DNA of 64,000 bases from Bolinopsis microptera (Eukaryota > Ctenophora > Tentaculata > Lobata > Bolinopsidae), in assembly GCF_026151205.1 (NCBI RefSeq), contig NC_087075.1:5512858-5576857 (forward strand), written 5' to 3'. Positions 37,601 to 54,200 of this stretch are shown in pieces. The notes beneath the pieces were generated by a model that was given only the letters and a program-made list of their open reading frames with translations, ran no database searches and had not been told where the DNA came from. Numbering within the stretch: position 1 is the first letter of the stretch; each line of letters opens with the position of its first letter. Made by a program: the position numbers and the translations under genes.

Positions 37601-37929
37601 ATTTGACCAAAACCCATAATCATGGGTAGAGTGTACCGCTGCCAGTGTCTCTCTTTTCCAAACAAAAGGAAATGATATTAATTTGAGGAACAGTCCGCTA
37701 ATGCAAATTGATACCGAGAATGAAATCGGTCGCTCGCTTTTTCAAATCAATAAGCTTTATTACAATTCGTAAGCCGTGATCGAATGGAAAAAGCGAGCGA
37801 TCGATTTCATTCTCGGTATCAATTTGCATTAGCGGACTGTTCCTCAAATTAATATCATTTCCTTTTGTTTGGAAAAGAGAGACACTGGCAGCGGTACACT
37901 CTACCCATGATTATGGGTTTTGGTCAAAT
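37601..37929 (+). mobile_element. Foldback hairpin, type A, clean copy
   Basis: Arms 37601-37742 and 37788-37929 are 142 bp each and complementary with a single mismatch; the loop is 45 bp. No ORF. This is the clean version of hairpin A from the tandem array. The arms share ATTTGACCAAAACCCATAAT as the outer end. Confidence 0.95.
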
Positions 37930-38940
37930 ATCATCTCATTTTGATTATAATGTCAGGATAATTTACACAGCTAGTCGAAACTTCATTAACAATAAGGAGG
38001 TAATTTCGACGATTTCGAAATTCTGCCTTTGAAAACGTTTCCTTGTGTTTAGTTAGGTATTTCTGTCGATAACCGACTGAATATGGCACTTTTTACTCAT
38101 TCAAGTTGGCATTAAATTCATATATAATGCCATTTAAATATCGTGGAAAGCAGAATATATTCGAAATCACGAATGAGCAAATTTCTCACCTTTCGCACGT
38201 GCAAACTTTGAGCGGACGTCGCGTGCGCATACAATATTGAATCACCGTACATTTTTGCATAGTGGTATTTAATATATAGTTTGATAAGCATGCAAAGTTT
38301 CAGAAGATTTCAAAAAGAACTTGGATCACAACGGGACTCCAAAGTTGATAAAAATCGTGAAAATCAAAATTTTTAGCGATTTTAGCTATTTTAAATGAAT
38401 TTGGGCGTGTCCCCACGTGTGCAACTTTTCGATTTTTAACTTTAAAACTAGCCTATAACACAATTTACACCTTTAAGAAGCAAAATTGAGCTCCACAACC
38501 CAAGGGATGGCCCAACACCAGAGAATACTAATTCACAACTTTTGTGTTTTTATAAAATTATTCTTCAAAAAAGCACTAACTTCAATAGCAAATATCTTTA
38601 TGAAGGAGCAAGGTAGGAAACTATTCCGGTAGATTTTCGGAATGCTTGAACAATTATCTAAGATGAAAATGTCCTCAGATTTTGAATAAAATTACTCCTT
38701 AATAGTGTAAAATCGATTTAAAAAGTTGTTACTTTGTCAAAAGTCAAGTTTTAAAAACACTTAACTTGATGACGTCATCAAGTGATGATGATGACGTTAA
38801 ATTATTTTTCAATACAATGTAAACTAAAGCTTAAACAATTATCTTCAAAACCTGTGGTTCGAGATGACAGTATCGTTTATACTTTTGAATCTACGGACAC
38901 TTAAATGTAGGCTACAATTGACTGCAAAAAGCGTCTATAC
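37930..38940 (+). repeat. Spacer S1, clean copy
   Basis: About 1 kb of non-coding sequence that always follows hairpin A in the array. It contains GATGACGTCATCAAGTGATG near 38768 (a CRE-like TGACGTCA inside a small inverted repeat), GGACGTCGCGTGCGCA near 38215 and CACGTG-like sites. Function unknown. Confidence 0.85.
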
Positions 38941-51200: not shown

Positions 51201-54200
51201 TGCACTTCGATGTACAGAGTTTTTATACTGAATCGGGTTAAATAGGTCATTGGTAACTCAAATCACCGAGGGGCACATGTTGTGTCGCTAGTCCCAACCC
51301 TGTGGGGCCCCCACAGGGTTAGGACTAGCGACACAACATGTGCCCCAGTATCTCAGCTTCTGAAGGTCTCAAACTTTGGCTTAAAATGACCGCAATACAC
51401 ATGTTTATATTGACACTATAAAGGTCATAAAGGCCCAAAATGCTTACTTTTGGAAAAAATCCAGAAAAACTGATTATCACCGGGGCTAGAGTGAAAAAAA
51501 TCTACTCTATGACTATAGTATGGAAAAAAAAGTATTGAGACCCATTAACGCGAAACTTCGTACACTTTCGCGCGTTACGAATCTCTGTAGACCCATTTAA
51601 TTAGTTTAATGGCTTGACGTATAGTAGGGGTGTTACGATATGAGGCGTGATATGATAACATGAGGCGCGCGGCCCATAAACAATAAAAGTTCAATCGTTG
51701 TTTATGCGCAAAAAATTCGCATTGGATCCGATCAAAGGTTCCTACACAAGGTCATTTCTCAATTCCCATTCATTTTGCTCCTGATAGTGATATATGAATC
51801 TACCGATTTGTTACTGGCTTAGAGGAACTGTTCCATTTCATTGTCAGTACGGTTTCTTCCTAATTAGAATCTAGAATAGACATAGAGTTACTGTTTAAAA
51901 TAACAATTCTATTGTTTACTTTTATAAGCTGTAATTTGACATTTGATATTGTTTCTTCAAGAAACCCTGTTCGATTTGACACCCTGTTCGATTTGACCTT
52001 ATTAACTTTTACTCTTTGTGCACACCCCTTTTTCTTCGTGTTAAACTGCTTTTTTATAGAAGCTAATTGAAATCGAGTTCGCAGTTTGGTGCCTACAATG
52101 TTTCTTGAAACCAGGTCTTTTGTAAGGTCATTCCGGATCAGAATTGATAAGGTACGCAATTTCTATCAGTAGTTCCAACCATAGGGGGGAAATTTTTAAA
52201 TTACCCTCAGGCGCAAATATATGACTTTTGTATCTCGGCTTCTGAACGTTGTAGGGGCCTCTCTTTTAGCTCAAACTAACTGCAAAGGCCACATCTACAA
52301 ACAAGCTACAAGGCAACGTAGGGTTTATAGTGCTTAGTTTTAGATATATTCATTAAAAACTGTTTTAACTTCCGTGCATCCTAAAATAGTAACACATGTA
52401 CTTAATTTTGGTATCCCGAGCTAAAAAAGTCTTACAGACACTTTACTTGCAGCACAGCAAAATGTTCAGTATGAATACATTCAGATAATATTTATGGAGC
52501 AACACAATTCAGTTACAGAAGCTCCTTTCCAGCTATCTTATCTTATCCCCAAATGTATACATCTAACCATATCTCTGGTTACTTCAAACTACTTCAATCC
52601 CCAAATTTATACATGAACATCTAACTATCTCGTTATATCTACCACAAGTTGGGCTCTCTCCAGTACCTTACCTCTCTCCCTTATCCCGTTGCTTTGTTCT
52701 CTAGTGACAATCCAATTGTTCTTTGGCTCCAGAGGTATCCTCGACCCCATAGCTTCGATTTTAGTATGTTCAGCTGCTTCAAGTTTATTCCCCGTCTCGT
52801 GTCATCGTTTTTTAGATTCAGACAAACATTTTGGTTTCTCTATTTGATCCCTTGATTATTTTTCATATATTTATATACTTTCAAGGGTAGCCAAATATAA
52901 GCGAAATGATCACGAAGCCACTACCGTTACTTTCTGTTTTAAAATGATATTTTAGCTAGTATCATACCGCTATTTAGATAATATACAGACGACATGTTAG
53001 CTACAATTACATAAGGTGGAGGGAAAATGTCCCATATAACTGGAACACATTTTATTCTTGATCTACTTTTTAAAGGTAACAGAGTGTGAGTATTAACAAC
53101 CAAAAATTTTAATTATAAATATTTACCACTACTATACCTACAGAAAGCAAGACAATGTCAATGTTTCTCTTCTTAATCTTACGATCGATAACTTCGTCTA
53201 TAAGTGGTGAGTTGGGCTTTAATTAAAACGTTCTGTTTCAAGTTCTGAGGGTGAATCAGCGCAGCGCCATATTCCCCTTCCAATTTTTGGAATCTCTGGG
53301 ATAAATGTTCTGTTGCCGAAAAACCACTGAAATATATCATTCCTCCAATCACACCATATCAAGCTGTCTAAAACGACAGAACTGCAAATCACAGACCAAA
53401 TTAAAATTTCAGTCCTGGAATGTTGGGATGCCTATGATAGAAGTAACAAGGGATCAGGATATCGGGGGACTAAATCTACAACGGTTAAAGGCGTCACATG
53501 TCAGAATTGGTTGTCAGATAGTCCCCACGAATCAAAGATAACGCAATTGTGAGTATACTTATTTTACCAAAACCCATAATCATGGGTAGAGTGGAGCGCT
53601 GCCAGTGTCTCTCTTTCCCAAACAAAAGGCAATGATATCGATTTGAATGACCGTTATCAAATGCAAAATGATACCGAGAATGAAATCGGTCGCTCGCTTT
53701 TCCCACTCATTCATGGCTTACGAATTGTAATAAGTTTCGATTTATAACATGTAATCTATTTCAATTGTAAATGAATGGGAAAAGCGAGCGACCGATTTCA
53801 TTCTCGGTATCATTTTGCATTTGATAACGGTCATTCAAATCGATATCATTGCCTTTTGTTTGGGAAAGAGAGACACTGGCAGCGCTCCACTCTACCCATG
53901 ATTATGGGTTTTGGTAAAATATCATCTCTTTTTTATTATAATGTCAGGGTACTTTACAAAGCCGAAATATAAACTCATAACTTCATTAATATTAATAAGG
54001 AGGTTATTTCAACGATTTCGAAATTTTTCCTTTGAAAACATTTCCTTGTGTTTAGGTAGCATATTCACTGACTGAATTTGCCACTTTATACTCATTGAAG
54101 TTGGCATTAAATTCATATATAATGACATTGAACTGTCGTGGCAAAGCAGAATTTGTTCAAAATCACGAATGAGCAAAATTTTAACCTTTCGCACGTGCAA

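What the first reader, a model, noticed from the sequence alone, without database searches (positions are those of the whole stretch)
37601..53920. Foldback hairpins whose two arms evolve in concert
Three clean hairpins (37601-37929, 38971-39730, 53561-53920) have arms of 142-151 bp that pair almost perfectly within each copy but differ between copies at ten or more places. Examples: TGTACCGCTG/CAGCGGTACA, TGGACCGCTG/CAGCGGTCCA and TGGAGCGCTG/CAGCGCTCCA; GATATTAATTT/AAATTAATATC against GATATCGATTT/AAATCGATATC. In the tandem array, A hairpins carry CAGTCC/GGACTG and B hairpins CCGTCC/GGACGG. Every change is matched in the partner arm. Random mutation would break pairing, so either one arm is copied from the other (hairpin repair, gene conversion, or replication through a folded single strand) or pairing itself is selected.
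Basis: seen in the sequence. Interest (0 to 1): 0.75.

Follow-up and report, generated by a model that had tools for sequence, protein, structure and literature searches.

The report
Hairpin repeats that copy their arms
A dispersed non-coding repeat starts with a large hairpin whose two arms rewrite each other, so that even a ten-letter insertion found in one single copy sits in both arms; the process is known elsewhere, but here hundreds of copies in one genome make it measurable.

Summary
The three hairpins are real. Each is the 5' end of a longer non-coding repeat: hairpin + ~1-kb body + TA-rich tract. The genome holds 2,834 arm cores and 970 hits with intact hairpin ends joined to the body's first bases. 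In 126 sampled copies (not a random sample), 29 of 30 arm variants with three or more carriers are matched in both arms in most carriers; of 70 variants seen in one copy, 27 are matched and 43 are not. Three facts favour copying over selection or bursts alone. A 10-bp insertion, a triple and a single substitution each occur in both arms of one copy and nowhere else in the searched genome. Loops occur in both orientations, two of them as exact reverse complements. One left arm contains 26 bp of its own right arm, with that arm's private base. Homogenised arms and inverted spacers are known products of template switching between inverted repeats. Not settled: the element's class, and whether copying happens in resident copies or during mobilisation.

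The parts
37601..37929 (+). Hairpin W1 (short, 49-bp loop, loop orientation R); left arm 37601-37743, right arm 37787-37929
37930..38935 (+). Non-coding body of W1, on the same side of the hairpin as in the other copies
38936..38968 (+). (TA)n tract at the 3' end of W1; W2 follows head to tail
38969..39732 (+). Hairpin W2; arms 38967-39117 and 39584-39734 (151 of 151 identical), 466 bp between them
39733..40757 (+). Body of W2
53561..53920 (+). Hairpin W3 (80-bp loop, orientation F); arms 53561-53711 and 53770-53920
53921..54940 (+). Body of W3
10667..33516 (.). Tandem array of about 2.36-kb units holding A and B hairpins; indel-rich, possibly unpolished sequence

Best explanation
The hairpin is the head of a non-coding, dispersed repeat (hairpin + ~1-kb body + TA-rich tract) with about a thousand copies. 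Its two ~140-bp arms lie close together, so a polymerase or repair complex can use one arm as template for the other: template switching or short-range gene conversion between inverted repeats. This rewrites mismatches and small insertions so that they become matched. When the switch or crossover spans the loop it inverts the loop. When it aborts it can leave a templated insertion. Amplification then spreads matched states as subfamilies. Shown: matched changes, loop inversion, one templated segment, matched changes found in one copy only. Inferred: the enzymes, the rate, and that it acts mainly in resident copies.
For: 29 of 30 variants with >=3 carriers are matched in most carriers; 27 of 70 private variants are matched; my estimate, not a call, is that independent mutation would give far less than one matched private change. 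Patterns found once on each strand, i.e. in both arms of one copy, and nowhere else: L098 triple (exact), C1:17928031 (exact), 10-bp insertion of L110 (up to 1 mismatch). Matched length changes in 10 of 129 measurable copies, up to +10 bp. Identical loops in opposite orientation: L005 and L060 against L037 (49 bp), L042 against L052 (51 bp). L118: 26 bp of the right arm, with its private base, inside the left arm, in none of the other 131 copies. Template switching is reported to give arm homogenisation and spacer inversion (PMC8604942, abstract and passages).
Against: 43 of 70 private variants are unmatched; variants with two carriers are matched in only 12 of 28 carriers; 14 of 129 copies have one-sided length changes. 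Some divergent copies carry many unmatched and few matched rare changes: L097 13/4, L073 11/0, L060 8/0, L083 23/0 (its inner arm end is altered too), so the process is not uniform. L073 looks chimeric (my reading). Of four candidates tested for uniqueness, one (C1:12020415) has two further single matches on other contigs. On the body tree 17 of 68 internal and 78 of 156 terminal changes are one-sided. The spacer inversions in the paper read have short arms and spacers of a few bases; with ~140-bp arms ordinary recombination could act as well.
Confidence: 0.72

Rival explanations
1. Copying is tied to mobilisation: a single-stranded or folded intermediate has its hairpin repaired or re-templated at each birth, as in rolling-hairpin replication, so each new copy starts with matched arms and a near-random loop orientation.
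For: 76 of 126 copies have no arm substitution mismatch. Common variants are nearly all matched. Loop orientation is only weakly structured on the body tree: 12 changes against 16.1 on average in 200 shuffles, minimum 10. Divergent copies show mainly unmatched rare changes.
Against: Changes found in one copy only have no other copy carrying the same pattern even in one arm, which suits copying in place unless the source was cut out. No enzyme or second terminal hairpin was seen in the regions read; a Rep protein was not searched for. A weak rise of matched changes with body age (rho 0.16, P 0.07) leans towards copying in place.
Confidence: 0.2
2. Bursts from perfect founders only: each subfamily started from a perfect palindrome and nothing is copied later.
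For: The best-scored W1-type places are 98-100% identical over 329 bp; private changes are more often unmatched than matched.
Against: Matched changes, including a 10-bp insertion, found in one copy only; loop inversions; the templated segment. It also needs a way to make each perfect founder, which is copying.
Confidence: 0.04
3. Pairing itself is selected (double-stranded RNA, transposase binding or structure), so unmatched copies are lost and compensatory mutations are kept.
For: The arms stay long and nearly perfect in copies that differ by about 4-13%.
Against: One mismatch in about 140 pairs should cost little (inference), yet among 30 variants with at least three carriers only one, at the arm edge, is mostly one-sided. 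Independent mutation is very unlikely to give the same 10-bp insertion in both arms.
Confidence: 0.04

Closest known systems
Galileo / Newton and other Foldback-like elements of Drosophila
   Same: Two GalileoN copies have inverted arms >99% identical within the copy and about 7% different between copies; two other copies, at inversion breakpoints, have the middle segment in opposite directions (PMC2775673, passages)
   Different: There the inverted repeats bound the whole element, and the breakpoint copies are read as products of ectopic recombination. Here both arms lie at one end and about 1 kb of body follows; no transposase or clear target duplication was found
Template switching between inverted-repeat arms (quasi-palindrome correction)
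   Same: Arm homogenisation, spacer inversion, clustered multi-base changes (PMC8604942, abstract and passages); imperfect repeats made perfect (PMC3820800, passages)
   Different: The cases in the passages are single loci with short arms and spacers; here a dispersed repeat with ~140-bp arms and loops from 49 to about 480 bp
TIR-TIR recombination inversions of insertion sequences in Wolbachia
   Same: Segment between inverted repeats is inverted (PMC3004938, abstract)
   Different: There the element between its TIRs is inverted; here only the loop inside the head hairpin
Inverted repeats maintained in Caenorhabditis
   Same: Arms nearly identical within a species, orthologous arms less conserved; arm-to-arm conversion proposed (PMC1803023, passages)
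   Different: Intergenic repeats at paralogous gene pairs, not a dispersed repeat family

Membership tests
Foldback (FB/Galileo-like) DNA transposon | Long inverted repeats are the two ends of the element | tested here: not met
   Hairpin is at one end; 43 of 62 exact body 3' ends listed on C1 have an intact-ended hairpin 974-1136 bp upstream (median 988) on the same strand; 434 short hairpins against 437 body-anchored hits, a few counted twice, so hairpins are hardly ever alone
Foldback (FB/Galileo-like) DNA transposon | Arms more alike within a copy than between copies | tested here: met
   0.0122 within against 0.064 between copies, all 132 copies
Foldback (FB/Galileo-like) DNA transposon | Target-site duplication | tested here: inconclusive
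   30 copies with 5' and 3' flanks printed together, 2 of them without the 3' motif; by eye none is clear, 3' ends lie in TA-rich tracts or run into the tail element
Foldback (FB/Galileo-like) DNA transposon | Related autonomous copy with transposase | tested here: inconclusive
MITE | Short element bounded by TIRs with TSD | tested here: not met
   Unit is about 1.35-1.55 kb with one terminal hairpin
Non-LTR retrotransposon / SINE-like | Many 5'-truncated copies with a shared 3' end | tested here: inconclusive
   914 body 3' ends with up to 2 mismatches against 970 intact-ended hairpin hits; at least 43 of 62 full length; TA-rich 3' tails are present; two truncated hairpins in L163
Template switching between inverted repeats | Arm homogenisation | tested here: met
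Template switching between inverted repeats | Spacer inversion | tested here: met
   Two exact reverse-complement loops; 12 changes by parsimony
Helitron / HINE | HUH-helicase partner, terminal motifs, AT target | not tested
   Considered from recall because of the TA tract and tandem copies
Parvovirus-like rolling hairpin | Hairpins at both ends | tested here: not met
   Hairpin seen at one end only in the copies read
Parvovirus-like rolling hairpin | Rep protein | not tested
   No search for Rep was run

The most novel reading that the evidence does not exclude
The element is mobilised through a folded single strand whose head hairpin is re-templated at every birth, giving matched arms and flip/flop loops: a cellular repeat that uses terminal-hairpin replication like that of parvoviruses.
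Probability: 0.13. Interest if true: 0.8.

Novelty: new variant of a known kind. Interest (0 to 1): 0.5.

Why it matters
In the papers seen here, arm homogenisation and spacer inversion are described at single loci or in yeast. Here about a thousand dispersed replicates of one ~140-bp hairpin sit in one genome, so the ratio of copying to mutation, and the effect of loop length (49, 80, about 230 bp), position and age, can be measured. It also warns that matched changes in a DNA palindrome are not by themselves evidence of selection for structure.

Tried and rejected
1) Autonomous partner: DNA inside two bodies (an RT-coding piece in L161, a 4.2-kb piece in L163) sits about 20 bp apart in body coordinates but the two pieces are unrelated; rejected as an autonomous form. 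2) The 'tail' after the TA tract (40777-41298, 54969-55501) was first taken as the 3' part of the unit. It occurs in either orientation and on either side, so I treat it as a separate element; it follows the body in over half of the 30 printed copies, so this is not certain. 3) Left/right bias of one-sided private changes: 30 against 53 in all 132 copies (with L048 still turned the wrong way) fell to 19 against 24 once six divergent copies were dropped; rejected. 4) Rates of private change (arms 0.0012 per bp unmatched plus 0.0014 per pair matched; body 0.0036; 124 copies) do not separate copying in place from copying at birth. 5) Rfam: no match in the window at gathering scores. 6) Pfam on nine window ORFs: reverse transcriptase in three, one with an endonuclease domain, nothing in six. 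7) Organism not identified; no organism-level claim is made.

Dropped rows: L012 lacked an exact anchor; six copies with more than six arm mismatches (L060, L073, L083, L097, L132, L140) were left out (L132 and L140 appear to have partly deleted right arms); L096 and L130 were left out of the rates; three copies had no measurable arm length. L048 was turned round. Sampling was not random: 40 of 100 listed rows of 437 hits, 40 of 100 listed of 446, 40 of 87, roughly every second row, but I leaned towards unusual-looking rows; plus L002, nine loci and three of the window. This inflates rare variants. The four candidates for the uniqueness tests were chosen because they looked striking.

Full report
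OBSERVATION. The window is part of a 264.65-Mb genome in 232 contigs. The three hairpins exist as described: arms of W2 match 151 of 151, W3 150 of 151, W1 142 of 143 positions, while arms of different copies differ by about 4-13%. The 19 hairpins printed typically open ATTTNACCAAAACCC and close with the reverse complement.

ANATOMY. In nearly all copies sampled the same non-coding body of about 1 kb follows on one side of the hairpin, then a TA-rich tract; some bodies are cut short (L011, L012; L130). 43 of 62 exact body ends listed on contig C1 have an intact-ended hairpin upstream on the same strand, at 974-1136 bp, 35 of the 43 at 986-991; the other 19 may have altered hairpin ends, since only exact anchors were listed. 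434 short hairpins were counted without a body requirement and 437 hits with the body's first bases (a few hairpins count twice), so hairpins are hardly ever alone. Loop classes: 437 hits with N285-315, 446 with N466-496, 87 with N316-346. Arm cores with up to two mismatches: 1,402 forward and 1,432 reverse, control 0. Copies also occur head to tail (3 junctions among the C1 rows used) and head to head with about 11-12 bp between hairpins (2 pairs).

ARM CHANGES. 132 copies were aligned (129 of 130 loci tried, plus three of the window). In all 132, matched carriers of a variant are 490 of 513 (20 or more carriers), 55 of 60 (10-19), 38 of 49 (5-9), 19 of 68 (3-4), 14 of 48 (2) and 22 of 105 (1). 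After dropping six copies with more than six arm mismatches they are 474 of 487, 55 of 58, 32 of 36, 17 of 24, 12 of 28 and 27 of 70. Counted by variant, 29 of 30 with at least three carriers are matched in most carriers; the exception is the last arm column (0 matched, 4 not). 76 of 126 copies have no arm mismatch. Shuffling right arms within loop classes raises mismatches from 83 to 483 on average. On a tree of the bodies, internal changes are 51 matched and 17 one-sided, several of the latter the same change placed one node apart; terminal changes are 78 matched and 78 one-sided, and the matched terminal ones may partly reflect conflict between the hairpins and the body tree.

COPYING, NOT SELECTION. 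Four striking matched changes were searched through the genome as short patterns. Three occur once on each strand, at the two arms of one copy: the triple change of L098 (exact), C1:17928031 (exact) and the 10-bp insertion of L110 (one mismatch allowed). The fourth has its pair plus two single matches on other contigs. A carrier with further changes inside the pattern, or in a withheld stretch, would be missed. Matched length changes occur in 10 of 129 measurable copies and one-sided ones in 14. In L118 the left arm holds a 26-bp segment identical to its own right arm on the same strand, including a base private to that arm; none of the other 131 copies has the segment. I read it as the trace of a switch between arms.

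LOOP INVERSION. Relative to the body, loops read F in 91, R in 34 and unclear in 7 of 132 (a looser motif gave 90, 37, 2 and 3 unmeasured). Two loop sequences occur as exact reverse complements in different copies (49 and 51 bp), and the long loop of L015 is inverted against its class. Parsimony on the body tree needs 12 changes, against 16.1 on average in 200 shuffles among short copies (minimum 10), so orientation is only weakly inherited on that tree.

WHERE AND WHEN. Unmatched private changes rise with body age (rho 0.21, P 0.02), matched ones weakly (rho 0.16, P 0.07). Some divergent copies show mostly unmatched rare changes (L097 13/4, L073 11/0, L060 8/0, L083 23/0). Matched changes found in one copy only favour copying in resident copies; the near absence of half-changed variants with several carriers favours copying in the active lineage. 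One shared one-sided change (column 130, L065 and L093) may be a mismatch that was passed on, or parallel. I favour copying in place plus amplification, and keep copying at birth as the main rival.

KNOWN KIND. Template switching between inverted-repeat arms gives homogenisation and spacer inversion (PMC8604942, abstract and passages). GalileoN copies show matched arms within copies, and two breakpoint copies have middle segments in opposite directions (PMC2775673, passages). Tetris repeats group within two of three complete elements (PMC4079207, passages). IS elements in Wolbachia invert between TIRs (PMC3004938, abstract). Eight literature searches showed no one-ended hairpin repeat of this kind in the titles and abstract starts listed; most subscription papers are not held. 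Parvovirus replication is cited from recall.

THE ARRAY. Pairwise against W1, nine array units show 52-67 substitutions but 80-119 indel events each; two real comparisons show 82 and 102 substitutions with 26 and 48 indel events. That is what unpolished long reads give. A multiple alignment of the same units gave more substitutions than indels and many shared deviations, so I call it probable, not shown, and give no weight to differences inside the array.

CHECK.

Noticed in passing
window 40777-41298 and 54969-55501: A ~530-bp 'tail' element (TCACGACAATC...GTGA) with a GC-rich palindrome lies next to TA tracts in either orientation; 695 forward and 671 reverse matches genome-wide with up to 2 mismatches. 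It may be a separate small transposon that favours TA microsatellites.
   Followed up: partly
window 10667-33516: Tandem array of 2.36-kb units, all about equally far from W1 and indel-rich: probably an unpolished stretch of the assembly (less clear).
   Followed up: partly
L118 (C4:6211374-6212270): Left arm carries a 26-bp piece of its own right arm with the right arm's private base.
   Followed up: yes
G000 C1:17597778-17610335: Hairpins and tails are arranged symmetrically, suggesting a palindromic duplication of about 12 kb.
   Followed up: no
G000 C1:4036193-4036872, C1:21943286-21943973, C2:19082774-19083815: Head-to-head hairpin pairs with only about 11-12 bp between them (spacing computed for the two C1 pairs).
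   Followed up: no
window 3463-4444: Two perfect 489-bp tandem copies, about 550 bp from a reverse-transcriptase ORF.
   Followed up: no
window 634-2913, 6003-9647, 9774-10514 (minus): Three reverse-transcriptase ORFs, one with an endonuclease domain; the last two lie beside the array.
   Followed up: no
L073, L163: L073 arms look like two different subfamilies (chimera). L163 holds hairpins truncated inside the loop or arm and one with an extra left arm.
   Followed up: no
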